Assembly (NCBI GenBank): GCA_029254745.1
Contig: JAQWWZ010000041.1
Coordinates: 1-64,000, forward strand
Length of the DNA: 64,000 bases
Direction of reading: 5' to 3'
From: Opitutales bacterium
Lineage (GTDB): Bacteria; Verrucomicrobiota; Verrucomicrobiia; Opitutales; Seribacteraceae
Below are positions 15,638-58,441 of the stretch, piece by piece. Numbering within the stretch: position 1 is the stretch's first letter; every line of letters starts with the position of its first letter. Below the pieces are notes generated by a model. It was not told where the DNA came from, did not search any database, and was given only the letters and a program-made list of their open reading frames with translations. The position numbers were made by a program, and so were the translations under genes.

Positions 15638-15640
15638 TTT

Positions 15641-15668
15641 CAGCAACCCTGTGTTGTTGGATTTTTTC
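15641..15668 (+). terminator. Rho-independent terminator after rpsU
   Basis: A 7-bp stem pairs CAGCAAC (15641-15647) with GTTGTTG (15653-15659), including one G-T pair, around a 5-nt loop. TTTTTT follows at 15662-15667. It begins 3 bp after the rpsU stop and separates rpsU from the cyclase/TIR module. Confidence 0.65.
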
Positions 15669-15706: not shown

Positions 15707-17665
15707 ATGTCCCAATTAGCCAAGAGGCAAACCCTCAGTCTTCGCCAGCAATGGCGTGTTTTTGATAAACAAAATGCTTCCTCCAAGGCCTATTCTGACC
15801 TGTCAGGCAGGATGATCCAAGTCGGGGAGTTTCTTCTGGCTCATGATGTAGCCAAAGATGGTCTAGGAAAGCACAAAAACGACCGGTTGCTTTCGCAAAA
15901 AGCAGCTCATGCACTTTGTAAAGCTGGCTCTCCCATGATGGCCACAAAAATTCTGGAAGGATTGGTCACTTCTGGAGTGAGAGATGTGGAAACCCAAAGC
16001 TTACTTGCAAGTGCTTACAAAGACCTTTGCGAGTATTCAAGCAATCCGGAAAACAAGTCGCACTATGCAGAGCTTGCTATTTACAGGTATAAAGAAGCTT
16101 TTGTTGCCCAGTTGGAAAAAGCTGAAAAAGGAAGCGATAACCTCGAAAGCCAATATTATCCCTGTATTAATGTGGCATTCATGCATTTTGTTTTGCACAA
16201 CCTGCCTAAGGCGCACAAATACGCAAATTTTGCACGAGAAATTTGTCGTACTCTCAGGCAACGAGGAGATGGGTCTTACTGGGTTCTTGCAACAGAAGCC
16301 GAGGCAAGTCTTCTTTTGGGAGAAATTAATGAAGCCATCACCACTTATTCCACCGCAGTGAATCTTGAGGATGCTCAACCCTCCCATATTGCCAGTACCC
16401 GGAAGCAAGCATTGCAAATTTCTTCTCTCTACCGTGATTCTTCCATACGCGAGCAAGTAAGTGAAGCCTTTCCGGTCTTAGGCATTGTAGCATGCTCTGG
16501 GCATGTGATTGATAATGCAGATGGTAATCGTCGGTTTCCTCCTGAAGCTGAAAAGATTGCCAAGCAAAGAATCGAAGAGAAGCTTGAGCAAATGGGGGCA
16601 AATTGTGGCTATAGTTCCGCCGCCTGCGGTACTGATATTTTATTTCTGGAGACCATGATTGAACGCGGAGGGGAGACTCATGTTTTTCTTCCTTTTGCCA
16701 AAGATGAATTTATAGAAACAAGCGTAAGAAGAGCAGGTGGTGATTGGGTGTCACGGCTGGAAAATGTTTTAGATCATGCAACCTCTGTGCACTATGTTAC
16801 CCATGAAGGGTATTACGGAGATGATTCTTTATTTTCCTTCTGTAATCAGGTCATGATTGGCTTTGCGGCAATGCGTGGTCGTGGTCTGGACGAAGATCCA
16901 CAACTTTTAGTTTTCTGGGATGGCAAACCCGGTTCGGTTGGCGGCACCGGAGAATTAGTAAAATCTTGGCAGTCTGCTTTTAATGAGCCTGTGGTTATTG
17001 ATGCAAATGAAGTGCTTACCGACCTGCCTAGCTTAAAGGCGGGGAGAGTTGTCGAATCACCGACTACTTCCGATTACTCGAAAGATGGATTCGGGGATGC
17101 GCTTCAACCCATCCGGTCGGTTAAAACAATGATTTTTGCAGATGCTGCAGGTTTCAGCCAAATAACAGAAGATTTAACCAGCCAATTTGTAGAAGCTTTT
17201 CATGGGGGAGTTTCTCAAATAATCGATAAACTTCCCCAACAGCCATCCTTTGTAAATACCTGGGGAGATAGTTTTTTCGCTGTTTTTGAGGATCTTGAAA
17301 GTGCTCTGAAGCTTGCCCTGGGTATGAGGGATTATTTTACAGATGGCAGGTGGTCTGAGTGGTTACCAAACGGAAATATGGATGTGCGGATTTCCATGCA
17401 TGCGGGACCGGCTTACGAAGAATTTGACCCGATTCTTAAAAAAAGAAACTTTTTTGGCAGCCATGTAAATCAAGCTGCCCGCATCGAGCCAATTGTACTG
17501 CCTGGCTCTGTGTTTGTTTCAGAGACAGTTGCTGCCCTAATTTCGTTTGGTTATGAAGAATATGATTTTGAATATGCGGGCAATATCGATTTGGCCAAGA
17601 ATTACGGGACATATCCAGTGTATATTCTTCAAAGAAAAGGTTATTCGGATAAATTAATTTCATAA
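15707..17665 (+). CDS. TPR + SLOG-like Rossmann + class III nucleotidyl cyclase
   Basis: The 652-residue protein is soluble. Residues about 30-245 are helical TPR-like repeats (AIYRYKEAFVAQL, ANFAREICRTLR, EINEAITTYSTAVNL) of the type annotated as TRAFs-binding. Residues about 256-430 look like a SLOG-type Rossmann domain (LGIVACSGHVID, then YSSAACGTDILFLE at 302-315). Residues about 471-640 form a class III cyclase with both metal aspartates: D479 in MIFADAAGFS and D521 in NTWGDSFFAVF. The transition-state pair N588/R592 lies in VNQAARIE. The canonical adenine-recognising Lys and Asp positions are N517 and N581, so the product base is uncertain. The TIR-FGE gene starts 6 bp downstream. The role is inferred to be making a nucleotide signal for the TIR partner. 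It sits between housekeeping genes. Confidence 0.88.
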   Translation: MSQLAKRQTLSLRQQWRVFDKQNASSKAYSDLSGRMIQVGEFLLAHDVAKDGLGKHKNDRLLSQKAAHALCKAGSPMMATKILEGLVTSGVRDVETQSLLASAYKDLCEYSSNPENKSHYAELAIYRYKEAFVAQLEKAEKGSDNLESQYYPCINVAFMHFVLHNLPKAHKYANFAREICRTLRQRGDGSYWVLATEAEASLLLGEINEAITTYSTAVNLEDAQPSHIASTRKQALQISSLYRDSSIREQVSEAFPVLGIVACSGHVIDNADGNRRFPPEAEKIAKQRIEEKLEQMGANCGYSSAACGTDILFLETMIERGGETHVFLPFAKDEFIETSVRRAGGDWVSRLENVLDHATSVHYVTHEGYYGDDSLFSFCNQVMIGFAAMRGRGLDEDPQLLVFWDGKPGSVGGTGELVKSWQSAFNEPVVIDANEVLTDLPSLKAGRVVESPTTSDYSKDGFGDALQPIRSVKTMIFADAAGFSQITEDLTSQFVEAFHGGVSQIIDKLPQQPSFVNTWGDSFFAVFEDLESALKLALGMRDYFTDGRWSEWLPNGNMDVRISMHAGPAYEEFDPILKKRNFFGSHVNQAARIEPIVLPGSVFVSETVAALISFGYEEYDFEYAGNIDLAKNYGTYPVYILQRKGYSDKLIS

Positions 17666-17671
17666 GTCTTT

Positions 17672-19156
17672 ATGGATTCCTTTCATTCTGCTCATAGCTC
17701 GGCTGATGTACCTTCTCCCTTTGAGTCTTATTCCGGTGATGGTCCTTATTCTTTCATTAGCTATGCCCATGCAGATAAGGTAAAAGTATATAAAACAATT
17801 CGTGAATTTAAGACTAAAGGTATAAATGTTTGGTTTGATGAAGGAATACCACCGGCGGGTGAGTGGGTAGACGAACTCGCCCAAGCCATTAAAAAATCAT
17901 CAGCTTTTGTTGTCTTTGTTTCTCATCGATCTGCGGATTCTAGGTATGTTCGTATGGAAGTGCAATATGCCTTAAGTGAGCAAAAAGAGATCCTCACTAT
18001 TTTTCTGGAGGATACTAAATTACCCCCTGGGCTTTCCTTGTGCCTCCAGCAATTTCAGTCCATCTCGGTGTCGGAAAAAAATTGGATGGAAAGTGCGTGC
18101 AAAGCTTTGCTTCAAAGACAGGATGCTGTTGCAACTAACCGCTCAAATGGGAGATCTGAACCAGAACTTGTCGACGAGGAGGAAGTTGACTATGGTTTGG
18201 AACTCTGGTCATTTTGGAATAAAGCACAGGCTGTGCAAAACAAGAGATTTGAACGGCGCGGTAACCTCTCACCTCCTCAAGCTTTGCCTGTTCACGAAAG
18301 TGTCTCAGAAAATGTTGTGCCTGAATTAAATTCTACCAGCCTGCAAGATGCTCACCCCATTCCCTTTCCGCAGGATTTTGAAAAAACAAGACATCCATTT
18401 GCAGTGGATGTCTCCATAACACCTCAACAGACCAAAGAAAAACAAGAATTTCATGAACATCATGTGAATGATTATGCCGGAGTTTTTAAGTGGATTCCTC
18501 CCGGTAAGATTACCATCTTGGTACCATATTCGGATGAACGCAGGCTTGTTCATGTACGAGATGGTTTTTGGCTTGGCGAGTTTGTGATCACCCAATCTGT
18601 ATACTCAAAGCTTATGGGATCAAATCCCAGTTTTACCGAGTTGGGCTTGGGTGAAAATTCTGAAAATTATCCTGTAAATAACATTTCCTGGCTCGATGCG
18701 GTCTCTTTTTGCCGTGCCCTTACCATGCTCGCTCAAAATGAAGGACAACTGCCAGCTAAACATGAGTACAGACTGCCGACAGAAGTGGAGTGGGAATATG
18801 CTTGCCGGGCTGGTTCCCAAACAGATTTTTATTTTGGGGATGAACCAACTGTTTTACATAATCATGGATGGTTTCGTGGGAACAGTCGCAAAAAAATGCA
18901 CCCCGTTGGCTTAAAGTCACCAAATTCATGGGGTCTCTTTGATCTCCATGGTAATGTTAGAGAGTGGGTTGGGAATTCTTTCGTAAATACTCTTCTTAAC
19001 GATAGCGAACAAGATGAGTTCAGGATCAGCCGAGGTGGGGCATACATGAAGCCAGCGATTGAATGTAAATCATCTTCTAGATCCACCAATTCGTTACACC
19101 ATCGCTTTCGTAATCTTGGGTTCCGGGTAGCTTTAGCCTCAACCGCTAAGGTCTAG
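17672..19156 (+). CDS. TIR domain fused to FGE-sulfatase-like domain (candidate effector)
   Basis: The 494-residue protein has no signal peptide. Residues about 25-148 form a bacterial TIR domain: YSFISYAHAD, a WFDEGIPPAGEW loop, then AFVVFVSHRSADSRYVRMEVQYAL with E96 at the position of the catalytic Glu of TIR NADases. A charged, low-complexity linker (150-265) leads to an FGE-sulfatase/fGS domain (about 270-490) with IPPGKITI, LGEFVITQSVYSKLMG, YRLPTEVEWEYACRAG, HGNVREWVGN and SRGGAY. The FGE active-site cysteine pair is not present in the usual form (only C465 follows GGAY), so it is more likely a binding module than a formylglycine maker. It is tightly linked to the cyclase gene. Likely NAD+-depleting or signalling effector, by inference. 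Confidence 0.9.
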   Translation: MDSFHSAHSSADVPSPFESYSGDGPYSFISYAHADKVKVYKTIREFKTKGINVWFDEGIPPAGEWVDELAQAIKKSSAFVVFVSHRSADSRYVRMEVQYALSEQKEILTIFLEDTKLPPGLSLCLQQFQSISVSEKNWMESACKALLQRQDAVATNRSNGRSEPELVDEEEVDYGLELWSFWNKAQAVQNKRFERRGNLSPPQALPVHESVSENVVPELNSTSLQDAHPIPFPQDFEKTRHPFAVDVSITPQQTKEKQEFHEHHVNDYAGVFKWIPPGKITILVPYSDERRLVHVRDGFWLGEFVITQSVYSKLMGSNPSFTELGLGENSENYPVNNISWLDAVSFCRALTMLAQNEGQLPAKHEYRLPTEVEWEYACRAGSQTDFYFGDEPTVLHNHGWFRGNSRKKMHPVGLKSPNSWGLFDLHGNVREWVGNSFVNTLLNDSEQDEFRISRGGAYMKPAIECKSSSRSTNSLHHRFRNLGFRVALASTAKV

Positions 19157-19230
19157 GATTCTGATTCCTTGCCAGGGAATTGTTTTCCCATTGTCTTTGC
19201 ATTTAAAAAAAGGCATGAATATTCCCTGCC

Positions 19231-42077: not shown

Positions 42078-42431
42078 ATGAGTAATCGTTCTATCATTAT
42101 AATACTTAGCTTAATTTCAGTGTTAGGAGCTGGTTCGATTGGGTTAGTATGGTTAAGGATGGAAATCTCAACTATAGCAAAAGAGTGTGGTGATCTTGAA
42201 GATGAATTAGAAATTATAGCACGGGAAGTTCATGAGCTGAGAGCGCAGAAATCCAGGGCTATGCGTCCTTCTTCTCTAGCTTCTATGGTGAGCGGAAGAC
42301 TTTCTATGCCAAACTCCAGGTTGACCTTTCATGTGAGCGGAGATGATATAAGAAGACGGCTTGGTACTCTGCCAAATGTAGCTACAGTTGATAGATTCAA
42401 TTCTGCAGGGGAGTTTGCGGGGACTAGGTGA
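42078..42431 (+). CDS. ftsL: FtsL-like cell division protein
   Basis: The 117-residue protein has one N-terminal membrane helix (SIIIILSLISVLGAGSIGLVWL at about 5-26). A short coiled coil follows (EISTIAKECGDLEDELEIIAREVHELRAQ at about 30-58), then a Ser/Arg-rich tail. Position between rsmH and ftsI and this topology fit FtsL, which works with FtsB and FtsQ to activate FtsW/FtsI. Sequence is too divergent to name by motif. It ends 1 bp before the ftsI ATG. Confidence 0.75.
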   Translation: MSNRSIIIILSLISVLGAGSIGLVWLRMEISTIAKECGDLEDELEIIAREVHELRAQKSRAMRPSSLASMVSGRLSMPNSRLTFHVSGDDIRRRLGTLPNVATVDRFNSAGEFAGTR

Positions 42432-42432
42432 A

Positions 42433-44238
42433 ATGAAGAGTATCTTTGTTTCTCCTGTTCGATTTTATTTAGTTTTCCTATCCATCGCTTTCGCTTTTTG
42501 CTTCTTAGGTGGACGGCTTTATTATCTCCAGGTTCACCAATCCGAGAAATATAGTAAGTTTGCACTTGGAGCCCGTAAAAACTTTATCAGCATCGATGCA
42601 AGGCGTGGAGATATTGTAGATAAAAAAGGGAATTTACTCGCAAGTACGCGTTCTGTGGTCACCGTTGGGCTAGATCCACATTCTGTCGAAAATAAAGAAG
42701 ATTGGAAATATGTAGAGCTCGCCAAACTTTTAGAGCTACCGATTGAAAACATTCAGGAAGCAATTGCTCGAAAAATAAGAAAAAGCGGTAAACTTGGAGA
42801 AAAGATTTCAAAAGTAAGGTGGGTAAAGTTAAAAGATGAAGTGGATGAAGGAACTTATCGTAAGATACAGTTTTTACGCGTCAAAGGGGTGTATGGTAAT
42901 TTTAAGCATTCAAGGATTTATCCAAACCGCAATTTAGCAAGTCACATATTAGGCTTTGTAAATAAAGAAGGTGTTCCTGCTATGGGGGTAGAGCGCTTGG
43001 CTGATTATTATCTACGGGGACAGGATGGTTGGAGGGAAAGTGAGAAAGATGGAAGGCGAAGAGAAATGCCCCAGTATCGTTCTTTTGAGGTTGCTGAAAG
43101 AGCAGGTTTAAATGTTGAGCTAAGTTTGGATCGCATAATGCAAGGTATTGTTGAAAAGGAATTAAAGTACATTATTGATGAATTTAATCCGTTAAGTGCC
43201 AGTATTATTGTTGGAGATCCTCGTAACGGATCAATCCTGGCATTAGGAAATGTACCGGATTTTGACCCTAATCATTTTAATAAGTATGAATTAGCAACGC
43301 AAAGAAACCGTGCTGTTTCAGACCTTTACGAACCAGGCTCTACTTTTAAAATTGTGCCTGTATGTGGTGCACTGAATGAAGGAATTGTTCATGGTCAGCA
43401 AATTATCGATTGCTCAGTTTCTACATATCAAAACGGTAGCAGAAGATTAAGATTACCAAGTGATCATCATCCTCTTGGTAAAATAAGCGTTCACAAAATT
43501 GTACAGAAATCAAGCAATCGTGGAGCTGCACAATTGGGCATAAGATTAGGTGCAAATAGGTTGTATAATTATTGCACAAGGTTTGGCTTTGGGAAAAAAA
43601 CAGATTTCGGAATAGGTGGTGAAAGAAAAGGAATGCTGCATCATCCATCAAAATGGGATGGTTTAACCATTACTAGGTTACCAATGGGTCACTCCGTAAG
43701 TGTGACCCCGATGCAAGTACATGTAGCGATGTCAGCTGTTGCAAATAAAGGTATATTAATGAAGCCAAGATTTATAAACCGAGTATTCGATGAAAAAGGA
43801 AAAACAGTCGTTTCATTTGAACCAAAACCGGTACGAAGGGTAGTTTCTTCTAAGGTTGCTCAAAATGTCACTTCTATGCTGGTTGATGTTGTGTCAGTTG
43901 AGGGGACAGCAAGGCAAGCTATGATAGAAGGATTTTCGGTTGCTGGAAAAACAGGAACTACCCAAAAGATTATAGACGGTAAGTATTCAAATAGGCACCA
44001 TGTTGCTTCTTTTGCCGGGTATTTCCCTGCAAATAATCCGAGATTGATGATAACCATTGTTGTGGATGAACCTAAAATGAAAAAAGGAAGATTAGGATAC
44101 GGAGGCAGTGTTGCTGGACCATCCTTTCAGCGCATCGGAAAACAAATGATAAGTTATCTCGGATTAAAGCCTGAAGGTAAAAAGGAAATAGTCAGAACAG
44201 AACTGGCAGCAAAATTTAAAAAATCACAAGCCCTTTAA
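42433..44238 (+). CDS. ftsI: Peptidoglycan transpeptidase FtsI (PBP3)
   Basis: The ATG at 42433 yields 601 residues. Upstream frame is rejected because it overlaps the ftsL tail. N-terminal anchor (FYLVFLSIAFAFCFLGGRLYYL), a dimerisation domain with RRGDIVDKKGNLLA, then the class B PBP active-site motifs: STFK (S303), SSN and AGKTGTT. It crosslinks septal peptidoglycan with FtsW. No PASTA domain is seen. It is followed 13 bp later by murE. Confidence 0.95.
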   Translation: MKSIFVSPVRFYLVFLSIAFAFCFLGGRLYYLQVHQSEKYSKFALGARKNFISIDARRGDIVDKKGNLLASTRSVVTVGLDPHSVENKEDWKYVELAKLLELPIENIQEAIARKIRKSGKLGEKISKVRWVKLKDEVDEGTYRKIQFLRVKGVYGNFKHSRIYPNRNLASHILGFVNKEGVPAMGVERLADYYLRGQDGWRESEKDGRRREMPQYRSFEVAERAGLNVELSLDRIMQGIVEKELKYIIDEFNPLSASIIVGDPRNGSILALGNVPDFDPNHFNKYELATQRNRAVSDLYEPGSTFKIVPVCGALNEGIVHGQQIIDCSVSTYQNGSRRLRLPSDHHPLGKISVHKIVQKSSNRGAAQLGIRLGANRLYNYCTRFGFGKKTDFGIGGERKGMLHHPSKWDGLTITRLPMGHSVSVTPMQVHVAMSAVANKGILMKPRFINRVFDEKGKTVVSFEPKPVRRVVSSKVAQNVTSMLVDVVSVEGTARQAMIEGFSVAGKTGTTQKIIDGKYSNRHHVASFAGYFPANNPRLMITIVVDEPKMKKGRLGYGGSVAGPSFQRIGKQMISYLGLKPEGKKEIVRTELAAKFKKSQAL

Positions 44239-44251
44239 TTGAAAAAAAGCT

Positions 44252-45790
44252 ATGAATACCAAACAGCAAAACCTTGAATCACTAAAAGACATCCATCATC
44301 GATTTTCAGAAACAGTTAGCTTAAATCGATTAACTGGTGAAGATGAACGAGGAGGGATGAATGAATCATCTGCTAGAGTGACCTCTCTAGTCACAGATAG
44401 CCGAAGGGTTACTCCTGGTTCTGCCTTTTTTGCCATTCGTGGATTACGAGCAAACGGAGAAGAATTTATTGATGAAGCAATCCACCGGGGTGCTCAAGTA
44501 CTTGTAGGAGAGGACCTTGACTTCGACGCTCATCCAGGGGTCGCTAAGGTACAGGTTGCTGATTCTAGAAAAGCTTTAGCTAAAATGGCTAGAAGGTATC
44601 ATGGTTATCCCGATAAAAATATAAAAGTAGTTGGAATAACAGGTACAAACGGAAAAACAACAGTTTCAACATTAACACGACACTTACTTGAAGAACCAGG
44701 TAAACCTGTTGGATTAATTGGAACGGTGAAATATCATCTTGGTGATCGGGAGCTTCCCTCCTTTAGGACTACCCCTGAAGCTTCAGATCTCTATCCCATG
44801 TTAAGAAGCATGCTTGCAGGAGGCTGTTCAGAGGCTGTGATGGAAGTAAGTTCTCATGGTATACACCAATCTCGAGTAGCTGAAATGGAAATGGAAGTGG
44901 TTACCTTTCTAAATCTTACCCGTGATCATTTGGATTACCATAGTAATATGGAATCTTACTTTCGCGAAAAGCGGAAGATTTTTAATGGCGAAAATGGAAG
45001 TTTGCCCAAAGTTGCAATCATAAACGGAGATTGTCCCTATGGCCAGAGACTGATGGAGGAATTACCTCCTCAAGTCCGTGTTCTATCTTTTGGATTGGAG
45101 GATCATAATTTGTTTCGCGCAAAAAATATAAATCTAGAAGCAACTGGGACTGAATTTCTTCTTGAATCTCCTGAGGGGTCGATGGTTATTAAAAGCCCAT
45201 TGTTGGGTAGATACAACATAATGAATTTACTCGCAGCTCTTTCAATCCTGCATGCAATGGGACGATCAATACCAGATGCAATACGAAAAATTGGTGCATT
45301 TGAAGGTGTTGATGGAAGAATGGAGACAGTTGATGACGGTCAGCCTTATAATGTAGTCGTTGATTATGCTCACACTCCGGATGCACTAAGAAATGCATTG
45401 GGAATGTTAAGAGAGTGCACAGAAGGAAAATTGCACCTTGTTTTTGGATGCGGAGGAGATCGGGATAAAGGGAAACGCCTAGAAATGACAAGAGTTGCTT
45501 GTGCTGGTGCAGATCAAGTATGGGCGACTGCTGATAATCCACGTACTGAATCTCTTGAAGATATTTTTAAGGATATGAAGAAAGGTCAGACACGTGGTGC
45601 TAAAATTTCATTTATTGATGATCGAAGAAGAGCCATCAGTCTCGCCCTTGATCAAGCAAATAAAGGTGATTGTGTTTTAATTGCGGGGAAGGGGCACGAA
45701 TGCTTTCAGGAGGTTCAATACACTGCAATTCCGTTTGATGATAGGAAAGTAGCCAAGGAACTAATTCAAGTGAAATCTCTGACCTGTTAA
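44252..45790 (+). CDS. murE: UDP-MurNAc-tripeptide synthetase MurE, meso-diaminopimelate type
   Basis: The 512-residue product starts at ATG 44252. ATP loop GITGTNGKTTVST, TTPEASDLYPML, VMEVSSHGIHQSRV and the lid NLTRDHLDYH are MurE features. ADNPRTESLEDI near the C-terminus carries DNPR, the motif that marks meso-DAP rather than lysine addition. The cell therefore likely has DAP-type peptidoglycan. The stop overlaps murF's ATG (TAATG). Confidence 0.95.
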   Translation: MNTKQQNLESLKDIHHRFSETVSLNRLTGEDERGGMNESSARVTSLVTDSRRVTPGSAFFAIRGLRANGEEFIDEAIHRGAQVLVGEDLDFDAHPGVAKVQVADSRKALAKMARRYHGYPDKNIKVVGITGTNGKTTVSTLTRHLLEEPGKPVGLIGTVKYHLGDRELPSFRTTPEASDLYPMLRSMLAGGCSEAVMEVSSHGIHQSRVAEMEMEVVTFLNLTRDHLDYHSNMESYFREKRKIFNGENGSLPKVAIINGDCPYGQRLMEELPPQVRVLSFGLEDHNLFRAKNINLEATGTEFLLESPEGSMVIKSPLLGRYNIMNLLAALSILHAMGRSIPDAIRKIGAFEGVDGRMETVDDGQPYNVVVDYAHTPDALRNALGMLRECTEGKLHLVFGCGGDRDKGKRLEMTRVACAGADQVWATADNPRTESLEDIFKDMKKGQTRGAKISFIDDRRRAISLALDQANKGDCVLIAGKGHECFQEVQYTAIPFDDRKVAKELIQVKSLTC

Positions 45791-47199
45791 TGCCTTTTTT
45801 TATTCCAGAGCAATTATCCTCATGGTCAGGGGGTAAGTGGCATGATTTGCCAAAAGACCCTGTTCGTGGTTTCTCTATAGATGCAAGAAACCTTGAAGAG
45901 GGAGAAATGTTTGTCGCTATCGAAGCAGAAAGAGATGGACACGACTATGTTGAGCAAGCTTTGGAAAATGGTGCTTCTTCTGCACTAGTCAATCGATTAC
46001 AACTTCATATTCCTATTCCACAACTTTTAGTAGAAAATACGCTGAAAGCTTTTCAGGAAATCGCATTAACTCATCGAAATGACTTTCAAGGGCTGATTAC
46101 TGGGATCACTGGAAGCTGTGGGAAAACGACAACCAAAGAAGTGCTGAGTTTACTTTTAGGTCGTAATTGTCATCGAACGGAGGGAAATTTCAATAACTAC
46201 CTTGGGGTACCTTTAACTCTGTCTAAACTCGATTTGTCCAATGATTATGGAGTCATTGAAGTTGGGATAAATAAAATTGGAGAAATGTCTGAATTAGCAA
46301 GAATTTTATCTCCCAATTTGGTGCTTATTACAATGATAGGCATTTCGCATCTTGAAGGACTCGTTAATCTTGAAACAATCGCATCTGAAAAAGCAAAGAT
46401 TTTTGAGGATTCCTTTGTTGAACCAAAGGTTATTTTTCATCACGAATGCCTACAATACGAACCGTTCAGGTTATGGAGACAAAAAGGAAACCCCCATGTT
46501 ACTTTAATCGAAGGAGATGTAGATAATCAAAGGCTCTCCTGCAGTACTGCTTTTTACGAAATTTGGACTGAAACAAACACAATAGGGGACTCATGTATGC
46601 TACGGCTTTGGCGTCATGAGTCCCCGGTTCTCGTGACTCCCATTCCTGCTGGATCTAGGGGAATGCACAAAAATATTGCTCTTTCTATACTTGCCGCCTG
46701 CGAGCAAGGAATAAGCCACCAAAGAATTTCCGAACGCCTACCCCAATATCGCCCTTCGACCTTGAGAGCAGCAAGCTTTCTTGGTCGGGGGCGGACCTAT
46801 TTTGTTGATTGTTATAACGCAAACCCTTCCTCAATGAAGGATAGTATTGAGTTCTTCTCCACCAAATTTCAAGGAACTCCCAAGCTGTATGTTTTTGGGG
46901 GTATGGAGGAACTTGGTGAGCAGGGAATGAGTTTACATGAAGAAGTTGGTGCTACCACAAAAGTAGAACCTGCTGATCTTTTTGTTATGATTGGAGAGAA
47001 AGCTTCTTGGATTGCGCCGGGACTATTGAGCAGTGGTGCAGTACCAGAGCAATTAATGATATTAAAAGATTTGGACTCTGCCCGTTCATTAGTTGAGGAC
47101 TTTCATGGGGCAGTTTTACTTAAAGGGAGCAGATCCCACGGTCTTGAAGAGCTCTTGCCTTCTTGGGCCGTTGAAGAAGAAAAGGGTCTAGAGTGCTGA
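45790..47199 (+). CDS. murF: UDP-MurNAc-pentapeptide synthetase MurF
   Basis: The 469-residue product has the N-terminal segment that binds UDP-MurNAc-tripeptide (FSIDARNLEEGEMFVAI), the P-loop GITGSCGKTTTKEV, EGNFNNYLGVPLTL and a C-terminal VDCYNANPSSM. MurF adds D-Ala-D-Ala made by Ddl (downstream). The P-loop has Ser-Cys where many have Ser-Ser/Asn, acceptable. Its end overlaps mraY's ATG by 7 bp. Confidence 0.95.
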   Translation: MPFFIPEQLSSWSGGKWHDLPKDPVRGFSIDARNLEEGEMFVAIEAERDGHDYVEQALENGASSALVNRLQLHIPIPQLLVENTLKAFQEIALTHRNDFQGLITGITGSCGKTTTKEVLSLLLGRNCHRTEGNFNNYLGVPLTLSKLDLSNDYGVIEVGINKIGEMSELARILSPNLVLITMIGISHLEGLVNLETIASEKAKIFEDSFVEPKVIFHHECLQYEPFRLWRQKGNPHVTLIEGDVDNQRLSCSTAFYEIWTETNTIGDSCMLRLWRHESPVLVTPIPAGSRGMHKNIALSILAACEQGISHQRISERLPQYRPSTLRAASFLGRGRTYFVDCYNANPSSMKDSIEFFSTKFQGTPKLYVFGGMEELGEQGMSLHEEVGATTKVEPADLFVMIGEKASWIAPGLLSSGAVPEQLMILKDLDSARSLVEDFHGAVLLKGSRSHGLEELLPSWAVEEEKGLEC

Positions 47200-48329
47200 G
47201 TTATTTGCAGTTCTATGAGTCATTTTTTGGCCCCTTACGTTTATTTCAGTTTATTTCTGTACGAGCAATTTTTGCTGGTATAACTGCTTTACTAATCGGA
47301 TATTTTATAGGTCCGACTCTTATAAAATATTTGCAGGCCTTTGGAGCAAGGCAGGCCTTTCGTAATAAGGACGAGGTCGGAGATTTAGCTGAATTACATG
47401 AGTCTAAAGCAAAGACCCCAACCATGGGAGGATTACTTATATTCGGTTCCGTATTGTTTTCAGTCTTTTTATGGGCTGAGCCGAATGTGTACGTGGTAGC
47501 AGCAATGGTAGCCTATATTCTTCTGACTTTTGTAGGCTTTACCGATGACTATTTGAAAGTGGCTAAAAAAGATAGTAAGGGACTTGCCGGAAGATATAAG
47601 TTAATGGGGCAACTCTTTACCACTGGGGCCTTCCTTTTTATATTATTGGGCCCTTGGTCTGAATACCTTTCCGGAGTGGACGGAAATGCAACAGGTAGTG
47701 CCACAAAAATGAAGGAGCTTTGGGTCCCATTTTATAAAGACCCGCTTCTTTTGGCCATGCCCCTGGTTGTAGTTTTCTTGTTTTTTCTCATTACCCTGAC
47801 AGGAGCAAGCAATGCGATTAATTTGACTGACGGCTTGGATGGACTAGCGATTGGTTGCACCGTGACCGTCGCGTTAAGTTACGGGATTATGGCGTATGCT
47901 TCAGGCAACTATTTAATCGCAGATTATTTGAAAATTAGTTGGGTTCCAGGTTCTGGTGAGCTGACTGTTTTGTGTGCAGCATTACTGGGTGGCAGCTTGT
48001 CTTTTCTTTGGTACAACGCACATCCTGCTGAAATGTTTATGGGAGATACTGGTTCCCTTGCCATTGGAGGCTTGGTCGGAGCCATTGCTTTAATGGTTCA
48101 TCAGCCCCTGACTCTAATTATTGTTGGCGGAATCTTTGTGATTGAAGCAGGATCGGTAATTATCCAAGTAGCTTCATTTAAAAGCCGAGGCAAAAGAGTA
48201 TTTTTAATGTCTCCGATTCATCACCATTTTGAGCTAAAAGGCTGGAAGGAGACTAAAGTCGTAATTCGATTTTGGATCCTTTCGCTTTTATTTGCTCTTG
48301 TTGGCCTTGCCACTTTGAAACTTCGTTAA
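47193..48329 (+). CDS. mraY: Phospho-MurNAc-pentapeptide transferase MraY
   Basis: The 378-residue integral membrane enzyme has about ten helices with KAKTPTMGGLLI, FTDDYLK, NAINLTDGLDGLAIG and PIHHHFELKGWKE, the conserved MraY loops holding the Mg-binding Asp residues and HHH motif. MraY attaches phospho-MurNAc-pentapeptide to undecaprenyl phosphate to make lipid I. Its start overlaps murF. Confidence 0.97.
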   Translation: MLSYLQFYESFFGPLRLFQFISVRAIFAGITALLIGYFIGPTLIKYLQAFGARQAFRNKDEVGDLAELHESKAKTPTMGGLLIFGSVLFSVFLWAEPNVYVVAAMVAYILLTFVGFTDDYLKVAKKDSKGLAGRYKLMGQLFTTGAFLFILLGPWSEYLSGVDGNATGSATKMKELWVPFYKDPLLLAMPLVVVFLFFLITLTGASNAINLTDGLDGLAIGCTVTVALSYGIMAYASGNYLIADYLKISWVPGSGELTVLCAALLGGSLSFLWYNAHPAEMFMGDTGSLAIGGLVGAIALMVHQPLTLIIVGGIFVIEAGSVIIQVASFKSRGKRVFLMSPIHHHFELKGWKETKVVIRFWILSLLFALVGLATLKLR

Positions 48330-48331
48330 CG

Positions 48332-49618
48332 ATGAAAAAAAAGAGTATGCAATGGGATCAAATGAAATCAAAACCGGTAGCGGTTTTTGGGAAAGGCATA
48401 AGTGGTCAAGGAGTAGCAAGTCTTTTAAATGAATTTACCTGGTCCTATGAATTTTTTGACCAAACAGAAAAATCATTTATGGATGCAAAAGCATCACAGT
48501 ATTCGATCGTTGTAACAAGTCCTGGGTTTTTCCCCAATCACCCTTGGGTAAAGAAGGCAAAAGCATCAGGAGTGCCTGTCTATGGAGAACTTGATTTTGC
48601 CTCCACTTTCACTAATAATAAAATTGTTGCGGTTACAGGAACCAATGGAAAAACAAGCCTTGTTACTCTGCTATGCCATATTTGGAAAAAAGCGGGTAAG
48701 GCTGCTGTTTGTGCAGGAAATATAGGGACTTCATTAAGTAGCATCATTGCTCGCGGTCTCAATTCCCAAGCAACTATATTTTTGGAAGTCAGTTCCTTTC
48801 AGGCTCAAAATATAAAGTTCTTATCTCCAGATAACCTGATTTGGACAAATTTCAGCCCAGATCATCAGGATTATCACTTGTCTCTCACAGAATATTTTAA
48901 GGCCAAGTACTCATTAGTTACACAACTTAAAGGGGATGGATTCGCAATTTGCGGGTTATCTGTCCATGAATTTGCCCGCCTCAATCATTTGCCTGTTCTC
49001 AAGGAATTAAAAGGTATTAGTCGGGATTTGATATCTCATGGTGATATCCAACCAGGTAGTTTCTTTTCAACATTTCCTCAGCGTGAAAATGTCGCTCTCG
49101 CTTATAAAATCTCTCGCCAATTGGGAGTCAGTAAAAAATCTTTTTTTACTTTCCTTCAATCTTATCAGCCTGAACCTTCTCGATTAGCATGTATTGCAGA
49201 GATAGACGGTGTTTCATTTTGGAATGATTCAAAAGCAACCAATTTTTCTGCTACAATTGCTGCCTGTAAGCATTTTTCCAATCGCTTGATATGGATCGGC
49301 GGTGGCCGGGAGAAAGGTGAATCTTTAGCCGTTTTATCAAAAGCTATGCATGGGGCAATTATTCATGCTTTCTTGATAGGTGAAGTGGCATCAAAATTAT
49401 CAAAGTCTCTTCAATCACATCAAATCAAGGTAACTTGTTGCTCGACTTTAAATGAAGCGGTAAGGAAAGCATTCAGTGGAGCGAAACAGGTAACTGATAT
49501 TCTTTTTAGCCCGGCGTTTGCTAGTTTTGATATGTTTGAAAACTATATCGAACGAGGAAACATTTTCAATAAGCTCGTTTTCGATTTGAAGAAAGGGCAC
49601 ACACCTTGTACTCAATAA
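48332..49618 (+). CDS. murD: UDP-MurNAc-L-alanine:D-glutamate ligase MurD
   Basis: The ATG at 48332, 2 bp after the mraY stop, gives 428 residues. A TTG upstream at 48272 lies inside mraY and is rejected. Rossmann start VAVFGKGISGQGVASLL, P-loop VAVTGTNGKTSLVTLL, FLEVSSFQ, NFSPDHQDYH and SFWNDSKATN fit MurD. It adds D-Glu to UDP-MurNAc-L-Ala. The N-terminal region is short and divergent compared with E. coli MurD. Gene order follows the usual cluster. Confidence 0.93.
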   Translation: MKKKSMQWDQMKSKPVAVFGKGISGQGVASLLNEFTWSYEFFDQTEKSFMDAKASQYSIVVTSPGFFPNHPWVKKAKASGVPVYGELDFASTFTNNKIVAVTGTNGKTSLVTLLCHIWKKAGKAAVCAGNIGTSLSSIIARGLNSQATIFLEVSSFQAQNIKFLSPDNLIWTNFSPDHQDYHLSLTEYFKAKYSLVTQLKGDGFAICGLSVHEFARLNHLPVLKELKGISRDLISHGDIQPGSFFSTFPQRENVALAYKISRQLGVSKKSFFTFLQSYQPEPSRLACIAEIDGVSFWNDSKATNFSATIAACKHFSNRLIWIGGGREKGESLAVLSKAMHGAIIHAFLIGEVASKLSKSLQSHQIKVTCCSTLNEAVRKAFSGAKQVTDILFSPAFASFDMFENYIERGNIFNKLVFDLKKGHTPCTQ

Positions 49619-49655
49619 TACTTAGTTTGAATGAATAAAATCGAGGAATTATAAA

Positions 49656-50759
49656 ATGAAGCTCACAAAGATATTCGGTATTGTACTCTCCCTTCACGTA
49701 GGAGTTATCCTGCTCGTGATGTTCCAGCCAAGTTGCCAGACTGCTAAAAAGAAGTCAGTGGGGATTACGCCTACTGATAAAAATGTACAACTTGAGCCCA
49801 AAGCTCCAGATGCTGGTTTTAATGCAGGAGTAGCAGATACTTCTTCCCCTCCACCTTCGGTTGAGAAAAAAGAAAGACCAGAGACTGTTGAGTACACTTC
49901 TCCAACAAGACCCGCTGCTGGCCAGTTAATTGTTCCAGGGCAAGGGGCTATCGAGGCAAGACCTCTACCTCCTATTTTAGCCGAAGAAAAAACATCTACA
50001 GTAAGTTCCCCTGTCCCCCTTCGCCCTTCTGGAGTATCCATTTATAAAGTCCAGCGTGGTGACACTTTGTGGGGTATTGCCAGGAAAAAAGGGATTAGTC
50101 TATCTTCTTTGCTCTCATCGAACCCCAACCTCAATAAGAATGGCAAGTTAGATATTGGGCAGGAAATTATGATAACTGGTGGATCCTCTGCGGCCCCATC
50201 ATCAATCACAAGAGCATTGCCTGTAGTGAATGCTCCAGTCGCCACTTCTTCTGGCTCAACTTACACTGTTCAAAAAGGAGATAGCCTTTCGAGGATAGCG
50301 AGAAGGCAAGGGGTTTCACTTGGAGGATTAATGGCAGTCAATGGACTAAATAAGTCATCCATCATTCGCATTGGGCAGACACTTCAATTACCAGACAGCT
50401 CTTCACCAAACGCTTCTGTGGGTACTGCCCAACCGGTTTCTTCGGTGGTACCGGATGGTGCATCCACCCATACAGTGAAGAATGGGGACAACTTAACCAG
50501 AATCGCATCCATTTATGGTAGTTCTGTGAAGCAGATTATGCAGTGGAACGGCTTGTCAGATGCAGGAAGAATTCGGGTGGGGCAAGTATTAATTGTTTCA
50601 GCCAGCCAGCCTCAACTGACAGAGGATGCATCTATTGATTCCTTGTTATCACCAGAAAATTCAGTTCCTGTGCAACAAGATGACTCAAGCGTGGAAGGAT
50701 TTTTTAAAGGTGTCGCTGATGAAAGACCAATCATCGATGTACCAGTAGACAATCCATAA
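49656..50759 (+). CDS. Membrane-anchored protein with three LysM domains
   Basis: The 367-residue product begins with an anchor (IFGIVLSLHVGVILLVMF) and PSC that is a weak lipobox. A Pro/Ser-rich linker of about 90 residues follows, then three LysM units: YKVQRGDTLWGIARKKG (about 129-145), YTVQKGDSLSRIARRQG (about 204-220) and HTVKNGDNLTRIASIYG (about 273-289). LysM binds GlcNAc in peptidoglycan. It has no catalytic domain. It is inserted between murD and ftsW in the dcw cluster, so a role in septal wall or division is inferred. A GAGGAAT lies before the ATG. Confidence 0.88.
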   Translation: MKLTKIFGIVLSLHVGVILLVMFQPSCQTAKKKSVGITPTDKNVQLEPKAPDAGFNAGVADTSSPPPSVEKKERPETVEYTSPTRPAAGQLIVPGQGAIEARPLPPILAEEKTSTVSSPVPLRPSGVSIYKVQRGDTLWGIARKKGISLSSLLSSNPNLNKNGKLDIGQEIMITGGSSAAPSSITRALPVVNAPVATSSGSTYTVQKGDSLSRIARRQGVSLGGLMAVNGLNKSSIIRIGQTLQLPDSSSPNASVGTAQPVSSVVPDGASTHTVKNGDNLTRIASIYGSSVKQIMQWNGLSDAGRIRVGQVLIVSASQPQLTEDASIDSLLSPENSVPVQQDDSSVEGFFKGVADERPIIDVPVDNP

Positions 50760-50807
50760 AAGCGGGACTGGATTGGCATAATATATTATGGGTGTGGAAA
50801 CCAAAGA

Positions 50808-51944
50808 GTGTCGGAAACAAAAGTAGAATTTAAAGATTCAAAGGTAGGCGACTGGGTGATGATCTATGTGATCTTTGCCGCTATTAGCCTGACGATGATT
50901 GGGTTGGTCATGCTCTTCAGTGCCGGAGTTGTTCGGGGTGCTCAGGCTTTGCTTACCAAGCAAATTATTTGGCTGGCACTTTCTTTGGTTATGGGGCTGT
51001 ACGCTGCCTTCATGGATCTTGATTGGTTGCGGAGAAAATCATGGTTTGTTTTTGCTTTGTGTGTCATAGCTCTCATTCTCACCTTGGTACCCGGCATCGG
51101 AGTGAAGGTAAATGGTGCACAGCGCTGGATTGGGCTTGGAACGCTTCGAATCCAGCCTTCTGAATTTGCAAAAATTGGTTTGGTTATCATTTTAGCTGCT
51201 TATTTTTCGAACCGACACCGGGAAATTAAAAGCTTTCTTTATGGCTTCTTGATTCCATCTGCCGTGGTTGGACTTTGCTGTGGATTAATAATTTTACAGC
51301 CCGATTTTGGGACCTGCTTTTTATGCGGGGCTGTAGCTGCTACCATGATGTTTCAAGCTGGTACAAGTCTTCGGTGGCTTCTTCCGGTGGCTGGGCTCGC
51401 TGTTGTTGCATTCTCAGTTCTTGTTTATTTTGATCCAGTTCGTATTAGGCGAGTGACATCCTTTTTAGATGTGGAGGCAAATGCCAATGATAGTGCCTAC
51501 CAGCTTTGGCAGGGCATGCTCGCTTTTGGCGTGGGTGGACTAGACGGTGTTGGTCTCGGTATGGGGAGGCAGCAAATGCATTTTTTACCTGAAGCTCATA
51601 CAGACTTTATTTTTCCAGTTATTGGAGAAGAACTAGGACTTTTGGTAACGGCTGGCATTGTTATCAGCTTTTTGGTTCTTTTTGCCAGTGTTTTCCTACG
51701 CTTACGACAGGCACCTAGGCTGTATGAATATTTACTAGCAATGGGAGCTATTCTTTTTGTTACGCTGCAGGCTATTATTAACATGGGTGTGGTTACCGGT
51801 TCTCTTCCCACTAAAGGAATGTCTTTGCCATTTATAAGCTACGGTGGCTCCAACCTCATGGTTACTTTTGTATTACTTGGTTTTGTGATAAATGTACTAA
51901 AGTCTATGAATAGTCCTGAACTATTGAGGGCACGGGAATTATGA
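50808..51944 (+). CDS. ftsW: Lipid II polymerase FtsW
   Basis: The 378-residue SEDS protein has about ten helices, with QRWIGLGTLRIQPSEFAKIGLV, DFGTCFL, EAHTDFIFPVIGEELG and KGMSLPFISYGGSNLM as family features. FtsW polymerises glycan strands at the septum with FtsI. It uses a GTG start. The stop overlaps the murG start (ATGA, 51941-51944). Confidence 0.95.
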   Translation: MSETKVEFKDSKVGDWVMIYVIFAAISLTMIGLVMLFSAGVVRGAQALLTKQIIWLALSLVMGLYAAFMDLDWLRRKSWFVFALCVIALILTLVPGIGVKVNGAQRWIGLGTLRIQPSEFAKIGLVIILAAYFSNRHREIKSFLYGFLIPSAVVGLCCGLIILQPDFGTCFLCGAVAATMMFQAGTSLRWLLPVAGLAVVAFSVLVYFDPVRIRRVTSFLDVEANANDSAYQLWQGMLAFGVGGLDGVGLGMGRQQMHFLPEAHTDFIFPVIGEELGLLVTAGIVISFLVLFASVFLRLRQAPRLYEYLLAMGAILFVTLQAIINMGVVTGSLPTKGMSLPFISYGGSNLMVTFVLLGFVINVLKSMNSPELLRAREL

Positions 51945-53080
51945 GGAATGTGGTCATTGCCTGTGGAGGAACCGGGGGGCACTTAACTCCTGGCATTGCT
52001 TTGGCCCAAGAATTGGAAGAAAGAGGTTACCCTTCTTGGATGTTCATCAGCCAAAAGCAGGTGGATGCCCGGCTTTCCAAAAAATACCCCAACCTTAGTT
52101 TCCAGCCTATGCCTGGTGCCCCCCTGATTAAATCACCACTTGGTTTGGCTCGTTTTGGAGAAGGTTTTATTCGTTCCTTTGTACGGTCTCATCGTTTTTA
52201 CAGACAAATCGGAGCCGATGCTCTCGTTGGATTCGGGGGTTTTTCTACTTTTGGTCCTGCGATGGCCGCTCGGATGCGTGGGATGCCGATATTTATACAT
52301 GAAGCAAACAGAGCAGTGGGTAAAGCTGTCCGCTTTCTTGCGAGGCGGTCTTCCCGCGTTTATTTGCCAGAGGGAATGGGACTCGAAGGTATTTCACCCG
52401 AAGTAACTCGTAATATCGGGTACCCTCTTCGAAAAGAATTTCGAAAAATTCCTTTGGAGCGAGCCCGCAAGCATCTGGGGATTTCGATTAATGATCGTCT
52501 CCTTGTTGTGATTGGTGGTAGCCAGGGGGCATCATCTTTAAATCAATGGGTTAAGGATCATTTGCAGGATTTGGCTAGCGAGGGAATTTCCACTTACTGT
52601 TTGACCGGTATGGGCAAGGATAGCTCTGGAGTGGTTCAGCTCGAAGGACCAGGGTCGAAGACTATAACCAGCCGTTTTGTTTCGTTTACTGATGAAATGA
52701 ATATGGTCCTTTCTGCTGCAGATCTTGTTGTTTCTCGAGCAGGGGCAGGAGCAATTGCTGAAATCACCCGTTGCCGAGTTCCTTCCATTTTGATCCCTTA
52801 TCCTTTTGCTGCCGATAACCATCAATACCTTAATGCATCCTACTTAGAAGGAAAAGGGGGAGGCGTTGTATGTATGGATCAAGCCATAAAGACTCACCTA
52901 TTGGAGGAAGTTAAAGAAGTAATTTTTAATGAAGAATTCCGGGCAATTTTGAGAAGAAATTTATACTCAATGGATGGAGGCGATATTGGTGCGAGGATGG
53001 CCACAGATTTAATTCAGAGCTTGCAGGAATCTACCATCACAAAATCTGTACAGGGAGGAGTTTTACGAGCAGTATCATGA
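51941..53080 (+). CDS. murG: Lipid II synthase MurG (UDP-GlcNAc transferase)
   Basis: The 379-residue GT28 protein starts with ACGGTGGHLTPGIALAQEL, the GGTGGH loop, and has GGSQGASSLN and SRAGAGAIAEITRCRVPSILIPYP for UDP-GlcNAc binding. MurG converts lipid I to lipid II. Start and end both overlap neighbouring genes by 4 bp (ftsW and murCB), indicating tight translational coupling. Confidence 0.96.
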   Translation: MRNVVIACGGTGGHLTPGIALAQELEERGYPSWMFISQKQVDARLSKKYPNLSFQPMPGAPLIKSPLGLARFGEGFIRSFVRSHRFYRQIGADALVGFGGFSTFGPAMAARMRGMPIFIHEANRAVGKAVRFLARRSSRVYLPEGMGLEGISPEVTRNIGYPLRKEFRKIPLERARKHLGISINDRLLVVIGGSQGASSLNQWVKDHLQDLASEGISTYCLTGMGKDSSGVVQLEGPGSKTITSRFVSFTDEMNMVLSAADLVVSRAGAGAIAEITRCRVPSILIPYPFAADNHQYLNASYLEGKGGGVVCMDQAIKTHLLEEVKEVIFNEEFRAILRRNLYSMDGGDIGARMATDLIQSLQESTITKSVQGGVLRAVS

Positions 53081-55284: not shown

Positions 55285-55291
55285 CATACTT

Positions 55292-56239
55292 ATGGAACTT
55301 ACAAAAAAAACCATTCACATTACTGTTTTATCCGGAGGAGTTGGCCCTGAACGAGATGTATCACTTGCATCCGGTTCCGCTGTATCGGATGCCCTGCGAA
55401 AAAATTTCAGCGTCGACTTAGTCGACATCGATGAGGCTAAAGTACCAGCCTTTCTCGATCCCAATAATACGGTCATTTTCCCGGTAATCCACGGTACTTT
55501 TGGAGAAGATGGTCGATTACAATCGCTTCTTCAAAAACAAGGCTTTTCCTTTGCAGGCAGTGAAACCAATGCCAGTCAGCTTTGCATGAATAAAGTAAGA
55601 GCGAAAAAAGTAGTCAAGGAAGCCGGTGTAAGGGTTTCTGAAGATTGCTTTTTTACAGATCCCAACACTGTTGTGGTGGATGATATACTCCGGTCCCTTG
55701 GTCCTGATCTTGTGATAAAACCTACAGATCAAGGCAGCAGTGTAGCCTTGTACATGATTCGTGGAAAAGATGAGTTATGTAAGGCACTTACCCAGTTGTC
55801 CAGTGGCAACTGGATGATCGAAAAGAGAGTTTTTGGAAGAGAATTTACAGTGGGTGTACTCGATCATATGCCTCTTGGTATAGTGGAAGTTATTCCCCAG
55901 GGAGGAGTATACGATTACAAGCGAAAGTATACCCAAGGGTCCACGGATTATAAATTTCCTGCAATTCTACCATTTGATTTAGAGGAAGAACTAAAATCCA
56001 AAGCCATGGACAGTTTTAAAGCCTGTGGCTGTCGTGATTTTGCCCGGGTAGATTTCATCGTCTGTGAAGATGGTTATTCTCACTTTCTGGAAGTGAACAC
56101 CCTGCCTGGTCTTACAGCTACTAGCCTTTTGCCCAAAAGTGCTTCCTGTTCTGGCTATGACTTTCCTAGCTTAGCCAAGCAATTGGTGCAACCAGCCATA
56201 AATAGATTTTCAAAACTTAACTTATTACCCGCAGCATGA
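55292..56239 (+). CDS. ddl: D-alanine-D-alanine ligase
   Basis: The ATG at 55292 gives 315 residues. The upstream open frame to 55247 lies inside murCB and is rejected. ATP-grasp features are VLSGGVGPERDVSLASG, a Lys in VIKPTDQGSS (TDQGSSVAL), VFGREFTVGVLD and FLEVNTLPGLTATSLLP. It provides D-Ala-D-Ala for MurF. The end overlaps ftsQ by 4 bp (56236-56239). Confidence 0.96.
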   Translation: MELTKKTIHITVLSGGVGPERDVSLASGSAVSDALRKNFSVDLVDIDEAKVPAFLDPNNTVIFPVIHGTFGEDGRLQSLLQKQGFSFAGSETNASQLCMNKVRAKKVVKEAGVRVSEDCFFTDPNTVVVDDILRSLGPDLVIKPTDQGSSVALYMIRGKDELCKALTQLSSGNWMIEKRVFGREFTVGVLDHMPLGIVEVIPQGGVYDYKRKYTQGSTDYKFPAILPFDLEEELKSKAMDSFKACGCRDFARVDFIVCEDGYSHFLEVNTLPGLTATSLLPKSASCSGYDFPSLAKQLVQPAINRFSKLNLLPAA

Positions 56240-57138: not shown

Positions 57139-57182
57139 CGCCAAACTGGAAAAATTGAAAAAAATCTCAAATTTATAAGCAT

Positions 57183-58394: not shown

Positions 58395-58441
58395 ATTCAA
58401 TATTGATTATCCCCCCCACGCCAATCACCAGTTAAAACGAT

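What the first reader, a model, noticed from the sequence alone, without database searches (positions are those of the whole stretch)
17117..17665. Class III cyclase with both purine-recognising residues changed
Seen: D479 and D521 (metal ligands) and N588/R592 (transition state) are intact. The usual adenine-specifying Lys of 'KTxGD' is Asn (N517 in NTWGD), and the Asp of 'DxxGxxVN' is also Asn (N581 in NFFGSHVN). Known: adenylate cyclases use Lys/Asp, guanylate cyclases Glu/Cys, and Pycsar cyclases deviate. Inference: the product may be cCMP, cUMP or another base, or specificity may be relaxed.
Basis: partly seen in the sequence, partly recalled or inferred. Interest (0 to 1): 0.7.

Follow-up and report, generated by a model that had tools for sequence, protein, structure and literature searches.

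The report
ASK1-like TPR–SLOG cyclase with TIR partner
The odd cyclase residues are real, but they are the signature of a large bacterial family in which an enzyme predicted to make a cyclic nucleotide is wired to an ASK1-like sensor scaffold and, in this lineage, paired with a predicted NAD-cleaving TIR protein; its chemical product cannot be read from the sequence.

Summary
The 652-aa ORF (15707-17665, +) has D479/D521, N588/R592, N517 (NTWGD) and N581 (NFFG). The inference of a pyrimidine or relaxed product is not established. N517 and W519 occur in 77 and 78 of 81 readable homologues from many phyla, so they mark a family and not an oddity here; position 581 drifts. The nearest solved fold is Rv1900c, a known adenylyl cyclase that also carries Lys->Asn (literature, from memory). 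PycC recognition residues are absent.

The larger finding is the architecture. The protein is TPR-S scaffold (model superposes on the ASK1 central regulatory region, Z 20.3) + DprA/SLOG-like domain + cyclase. It is followed 6 bp later by a TIR-FGE protein with an intact catalytic Glu. The pair sits between dnaE-rpsU and lysS in 10 of 11 family genomes and 34 of 36 close GTDB loci, under strong purifying selection (dN/dS 0.02-0.05). Elsewhere the cyclase is sporadic, and its neighbour is repeatedly a TIR or DUF4062 protein (14/86 adjacent vs 4/243 distant genes).

Best explanation (inferred): Thoeris-like logic with a cyclase output. TIR makes an NAD-derived signal, TPR-S/SLOG reads it, the cyclase (probably adenylate) fires. 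It is not Pycsar: no cNMP-binding domain found in the partner.

The parts
15707..17665 (+). TPR-S / SLOG-like / class III cyclase protein (652 aa)
   Evidence: AF2 model pLDDT 86.7, pTM 0.85
15716..16483 (+). TPR-S scaffold (aa ~4-259), all-helical, fold of the ASK1 central regulatory region
   Evidence: PF20308 44.1 bits over 57-159; 5ulm_B Z 20.3, rmsd 3.0, 233 aligned residues
16475..17026 (+). Rossmann-like domain (aa ~257-440), DprA/SLOG-like, with SAACGTDILFLE and GHVID..RRFP motifs
   Evidence: no Pfam match; beta/alpha order in model; Foldseek to a phage DprA-like protein TMt 0.78; profile match to DprA P 0.0095, probability only 4%
17102..17641 (+). class III cyclase domain (aa 466-645); D479, N517, W519, D521, N581, N588, R592
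17672..19156 (+). partner gene: TIR (aa 28-139) + FGE/C-type-lectin-like domain (aa 293-487)
   Evidence: 6-bp gap; kept in 34 of 36 Opitutales loci of the GTDB scan
17957..17959 (+). codon of TIR catalytic Glu E96 (SARM1 E642 equivalent, from memory)
   Evidence: invariant in 28 Opitutales TIR-FGE proteins and in TIR partners from other phyla
19049..19051 (+). codon of K460, which stands where formylglycine-generating enzyme has its first active-site Cys
   Evidence: K460 nearly invariant, C465 invariant; domain nearest to DGR variable protein TvpA
15639..15661 (+). terminator-like hairpin after rpsU, upstream limit of the two-gene unit (weak)
   Evidence: 7 found, 4.0 expected
19175..19189 (+). 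terminator-like hairpin between the TIR-FGE gene and lysS (weak)

Best explanation
The locus is a two-gene signalling module. Gene 1 is an ASK1-like TPR scaffold fused to a DprA/SLOG-like nucleotide-binding-type domain and a (presumably homodimeric) class III cyclase. Gene 2 is a TIR domain fused to a C-type-lectin-fold (FGE-like) domain that has lost FGE catalysis. Proposed mechanism: (i) the FGE-like domain recognises a ligand or assembles the TIR; (ii) the TIR cleaves NAD+ and releases an ADP-ribose-type signal; (iii) TPR-S/SLOG binds it, as ThsA SLOG does in Thoeris; (iv) this aligns the cyclase dimer, which makes a 3',5'-cyclic nucleotide, most likely cAMP with loose specificity; (v) one of the three cNMP-binding proteins in the genome, or another receptor, reads it. 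Shown by computation: the domains, the intact catalytic residues, the fixed operon, the recurrent TIR partnership and purifying selection. Inferred: every signalling step and the base of the product.
For: Domains. TIR catalytic Glu invariant; nearest solved TIRs are the immune proteins Cat1 and TIR-SAVED. Same-strand adjacency 6 bp apart in a fixed dnaE-rpsU-lysS context in 10 of 11 family genomes and 34 of 36 Opitutales loci. In other phyla the neighbour is again TIR or DUF4062 with a changing second domain (TPR, WD40, membrane, NACHT), 14/86 adjacent vs 4/243 distant genes, p 3.5e-6, with at least 10 label changes on the tree. Thoeris precedent: TIR product read by a SLOG domain (PMC9503650). 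TPR-S predicted to read NAD-derived signals (Burroughs & Aravind 2020, from memory; paper not held). dN/dS 0.024 for the cyclase protein, 0.049 for TIR-FGE. Three cNMP-binding proteins in the genome. cAMP favoured because Rv1900c, with the same Lys->Asn, is the nearest solved structure.
Against: Direction of signalling is not shown; the cyclase could be upstream of the TIR. One Opitutales genome (L053) keeps the cyclase but has lysS directly downstream, and most distant homologues have no TIR next door, so the TIR is not obligatory. The SLOG assignment is weak by sequence (hhalign probability 4%). The core-genome position and slow evolution do not look like a typical mobile defence system. The TIR-FGE model is poor (pLDDT 63.7). 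The TIR HMM used in the enrichment was built partly from these same neighbours.
Confidence: 0.4

Rival explanations
1. Pycsar-like order: the cyclase senses the trigger through TPR-S, makes a cyclic mononucleotide (possibly pyrimidine), and that product activates the TIR NADase as the effector, with the FGE-like domain or contact with the scaffold standing in for the missing cNMP receptor.
For: A cyclase beside a TIR with catalytic Glu is the Pycsar gene pairing (PMC11224242); the FGE-like domain is the slowest-evolving part of the pair (dN/dS 0.013), as a dedicated receptor might be.
Against: The partner shows no cNMP-binding domain in Pfam, the defining receptor of PycTIR; no PADLOC hit for the cyclase; PycC recognition residues absent; TIR absent in L053 and in most distant loci.
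Confidence: 0.22
2. ASK1-like physical signalosome: TPR-S recruits the TIR protein by direct protein contact, and TIR and cyclase are regulated in one complex for a housekeeping stress response, with no diffusible signal between them.
For: TPR-S has the fold of the ASK1 central regulatory region, which in ASK1 is an allosteric dimer scaffold (PMC10972558); the operon is a core, slowly evolving locus.
Against: Partner architectures vary widely across phyla, with the TIR as the main shared part; no interface was modelled.
Confidence: 0.2
3. The cyclase domain is a nucleotide-binding pseudo-enzyme: the changed pocket and, in many relatives, the lost catalytic Asn leave a sensor that binds NTP without cyclising it.
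For: N588 is S, T or G in 29 of 45 non-Opitutales homologues; inactive cNMP cyclase domains occur in other bacterial conflict systems (PMC7159879).
Against: Both metal Asp and R592 are invariant in the readable homologues; N588 is kept in the window's clade (36/36); active cyclases lacking this Asn exist (Rv1900c, Ma1120).
Confidence: 0.12

Closest known systems
TPR-S (PF20308) conflict/signalling proteins; ASK1 (MAP3K5) central regulatory region
   Same: TPR-S scores above the Pfam cut-off; the model superposes on ASK1 5ulm (Z 20.3, 233 residues).
   Different: Output is a class III cyclase and not a kinase; a DprA/SLOG-like domain lies between scaffold and enzyme; ASK1's thioredoxin-binding and PH domains were not seen.
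Mycobacterium tuberculosis Rv1900c (LipJ) cyclase domain
   Same: Closest solved fold and highest identity in the structural list (27%); same Lys->Asn at the base-specifying position (from memory).
   Different: Rv1900c has His for the catalytic Asn and an alpha/beta hydrolase upstream; the window keeps Asn588 and has Trp at 519 and Asn at 581.
Thoeris (ThsB TIR + ThsA SLOG-SIR2)
   Same: TIR gene next to a protein with a SLOG-like domain; TIR scores above the ThsB_TIR Pfam cut-off (36.6 vs 21.2).
   Different: The output enzyme is a cyclase, not a SIR2 NADase; TPR-S scaffold and FGE-like domain are extra.
Pycsar (PycC + PycTIR/PycTM)
   Same: Class III-type cyclase paired with a TIR protein.
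   Different: No cNMP-binding domain found in the TIR protein; PycC specificity residues and stand-alone architecture absent; core-genome locus.
TvpA and other DGR variable proteins / FGS-domain effectors
   Same: FGE-like domain is closest to T. denticola TvpA among solved structures (E 1e-24).
   Different: Here the domain is extremely conserved, the opposite of diversified.

Membership tests
Class III nucleotidyl cyclase | Cyclase homology domain above curated cut-off | tested here: met
   PF00211 45.6 bits vs 21.9; Foldseek and VIA matches Z about 20-22
Class III nucleotidyl cyclase | Two metal-binding Asp and transition-state Asn/Arg | tested here: met
   D479, D521, N588, R592
Adenylate cyclase by canonical residues | Lys and Asp specifying adenine | tested here: not met
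   N517 and N581; family-wide for N517
Adenylate cyclase by activity | Makes cAMP from ATP | not testable with these tools
   needs an enzyme assay
Guanylate cyclase by canonical residues | Glu and Cys/small residue | tested here: not met
   Asn at the Glu position (Glu in only 2 of 81 homologues)
Pycsar | Partner carries a cyclic-nucleotide-binding domain | tested here: not met
   Pfam on the partner: FGE and TIR, plus a weak sub-cut-off HIT-like hit
Pycsar | PycC pyrimidine-recognition residues | tested here: not met
   F477, N517, W519, F524 where EaPycC has F100, R142, Q144 and AnPycC has F60, K104, F109; BcPycC set also absent
Thoeris | TIR protein of ThsB type | tested here: met
   PF08937 36.6 bits vs 21.2; PADLOC ThsB E 9e-8
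Thoeris | ThsA with SIR2 and SLOG | tested here: not met
   no SIR2 match in either protein
TPR-S family / ASK1-like scaffold | TPR-S domain with the ASK1 CRR fold | tested here: met
   PF20308 44.1 bits vs 27.6; 5ulm_B Z 20.3
SLOG superfamily | DprA/LOG-type Rossmannoid fold and motif | tested here: inconclusive
   Foldseek TMt 0.78 to a phage DprA-like protein; hhalign P 0.0095, probability 4%; LOG profile no match; no Pfam match
TIR NADase | Catalytic Glu in the helix after the LS motif | tested here: met
   E96 invariant
TIR NADase | NAD+ cleavage | not testable with these tools
   needs an assay
Formylglycine-generating enzyme | Two active-site Cys | tested here: not met
   Lys460 at the first Cys position; only C465 kept (FGE motif from memory)

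The most novel reading that the evidence does not exclude
The N-x-W cyclases are an uncharacterised specificity class: N517, W519 and the residue at 581 form a base pocket unlike adenylate, guanylate or PycC enzymes and make a non-adenine (perhaps pyrimidine or mixed) cyclic nucleotide in response to an NAD-derived signal from the TIR partner, so one messenger system is relayed into another.
Probability: 0.15. Interest if true: 0.8.

Novelty: new variant of a known kind. Interest (0 to 1): 0.5.

Why it matters
If the relay is right, this is a bacterial ASK1-like signalosome in which a TIR-derived NAD signal is turned into a cyclic mononucleotide, linking two immune-type messenger systems that are usually studied apart. 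The locus is fixed in a marine Opitutales family, so it also offers a case where a conflict-type module has become core. For enzymology, the N-x-W signature defines a widespread, apparently unassayed group of class III cyclases whose product can be tested directly. A negative result would still be useful: it would show that deviation from Lys/Asp does not predict a new base.

Tried and rejected
1) Pyrimidine product from residues alone: rejected as an inference, because N517/W519 are family-wide, 581 is variable, PycC residues are absent and Rv1900c is a Lys->Asn precedent. 2) Pycsar membership: rejected, no cNMP-binding domain in the partner. 3) Mobile or phage-borne element: 28 pattern matches in viral contigs, none a homologue; only two plasmid records with good coverage, at 25% identity. 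4) Pseudogene or assembly artefact: rejected by dN/dS and conservation; the 'stop inside' flags look like natural C-terminal stops. 5) PDB sequence search of the middle domain: only an irrelevant weak hit; the structural list was filled by cyclases, so no statement that the fold is unknown. 6) Reading Rv1900c residues from a PDB alignment: two routes failed; the original papers are not held. 7) TIR-FGE model too poor to search.

Full report
OBSERVATION. Pfam finds TPR-S (57-159) and a class III cyclase (474-639), both above curated cut-offs; the next gene, 6 bp downstream, is TIR (28-139) + FGE-sulfatase (293-487).

IS THE SUBSTITUTION SPECIAL? A scan of GTDB genomes gave 284 related stretches, of which 78 distinct loci were kept, from Verrucomicrobiota, Spirochaetota, Pseudomonadota, Planctomycetota, Cyanobacteriota, Chloroflexota and others. 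Across 81 readable sequences N517 occurs in 77 and W519 in 78. Position 581 is N in all 36 readable Opitutales rows but N 21, T 11, S 7, G 3 and single A, M, E in 45 others. N588 is kept in the window's clade but is S, T or G in 29 of 45 others. D479, G520, D521, R561, P568, G584 and R592 are invariant. So N-T-W-G-D is the signature of a family, and the second 'purine' position is not fixed. Other class III cyclases found alongside also depart from Lys/Asp (for example D and Q in L016), so deviation is common.

WHAT BASE? AlphaFold2 gives a good model (pLDDT 86.7, pTM 0.85). The top Foldseek hit among solved structures is Rv1900c, also the highest-identity cyclase in the VIA list (1ybu, 27%, Z 20.9). 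From memory (Sinha et al. 2005, not held), Rv1900c has Asn at the Lys position and makes mainly cAMP with some cGMP; PMC4886424 confirms its mixed activity and its lost catalytic Asn. Ma1120, with Ala for that Asn, is also an active adenylyl cyclase (PMC4215837). In pyrimidine cyclases the recognition residues lie two before metal 1, four and two before metal 2, and just after it: EaPycC F100/R142/Q144, AnPycC F60/K104/F109, BcPycC Y50/D94/R97 (PMC11224242). Placing these against the two metal Asp (my reading), the window has F477, N517, W519, S522, F524: the shared Phe is ordinary, F524 matches AnPycC F109, and the polar PycC residues are missing. My estimate: mainly cAMP 0.55, mixed purine 0.2, pyrimidine or other 0.15, inactive 0.1.

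THE REST OF THE PROTEIN. Residues 4-259 superpose on the ASK1 central regulatory region (5ulm_B, Z 20.3, rmsd 3.0, 233 residues). This agrees with the proposal, recalled from Burroughs & Aravind 2020 (not held), that TPR-S reads NAD-derived signals and entered the ASK signalosome. Residues about 257-440 form a Rossmann-like domain without a Pfam match. In the viral structure library, where cyclases are fewer, it most plausibly accounts for a match to a phage DprA-like protein (TMt 0.78, rmsd 3.2), and the best of four profile comparisons is to DprA (P 0.0095, probability 4%). I call it SLOG-like, not proven.

THE PARTNER. The TIR keeps the catalytic Glu (E96) in all 28 Opitutales copies aligned and in partners from other phyla; nearest solved TIRs are Cat1 and TIR-SAVED. 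The FGE-like domain is nearest to the DGR variable protein TvpA, has Lys where FGE has its first catalytic Cys, and evolves slowest of all parts (dN/dS 0.013, against 0.137 for the linker). It is more likely a binding domain than an enzyme.

CONTEXT. In 10 of 11 family genomes the order is dnaE, rpsU, cyclase, TIR-FGE, lysS (rpsU read from the window sequence); 34 of 36 GTDB loci of the clade have the TIR-FGE gene, one is cut by a contig end and one (L053) lacks it. In the wider class the cyclase is sporadic (31 of 286 genomes). Outside the clade, immediate neighbours are TIR or DUF4062 proteins in 14 of 86 cases against 4 of 243 genes further off (p 3.5e-6); the TIR partner's second domain is TPR, WD40, a membrane domain or unknown. 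The label changes 11 times on the tree, at least 10 forced by supported branches, so the pairing recurs. Caveats: the TIR profile was trained on some of these neighbours, and the loci are not fully independent.

MECHANISM. The most economical reading is Thoeris logic (TIR product read by a SLOG domain, PMC9503650) with a cyclase as output. The genome has three cNMP-binding proteins that could read cAMP. The opposite direction and a purely physical complex remain open. Whether the role is antiviral or physiological is not decided: the domains are conflict-type, the evolution is core-type.

VERDICT. Observation confirmed; interpretation partly supported; new variant of a known kind.

Noticed in passing
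window 42388-59719: Complete-looking division and cell-wall (dcw) cluster: PBP, Mur ligases, MraY-type transferase, FtsW, a MurC-MurB fusion-like 735-aa ORF, Ddl, FtsA. The fused Mur-ligase/MurB ORF (53077-55284) is the only unusual part.
   Followed up: partly
L053 (contig CACMZN010000026.1): Opitutales genome that keeps the TPR-S-SLOG-cyclase but has lysS directly downstream, so the TIR-FGE gene is missing at this site.
   Followed up: partly
L094 7868-12289: Cyclase paired with a 1473-aa DUF4062-NACHT-TPR protein in an Opitutae genome outside the window's clade: a different sensor swapped into the partner slot.
   Followed up: no
L113 7954-9180: Gene after the cyclase homologue in a planctomycete matches the Cys-loop (neurotransmitter-gated) channel membrane region.
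   Followed up: no
L111, L119: Two planctomycete homologues have E-D-R-G-D instead of N-T-W-G-D, with Glu at the base-specifying position as in guanylate cyclases.
   Followed up: no
L016-L018 (cyclases in the same order): Another cyclase group with D at the Lys position (VVDTAGDS) and Q at the Asp position (QIFG), a second non-canonical pair.
   Followed up: no
L134 (Caballeronia plasmid pSBC2-4) and L135 (Tolypothrix plasmid): Plasmid-borne relatives or fragments with TIR genes nearby: one TIR gene a few genes upstream in L134, one directly after a cyclase fragment in L135.
   Followed up: no
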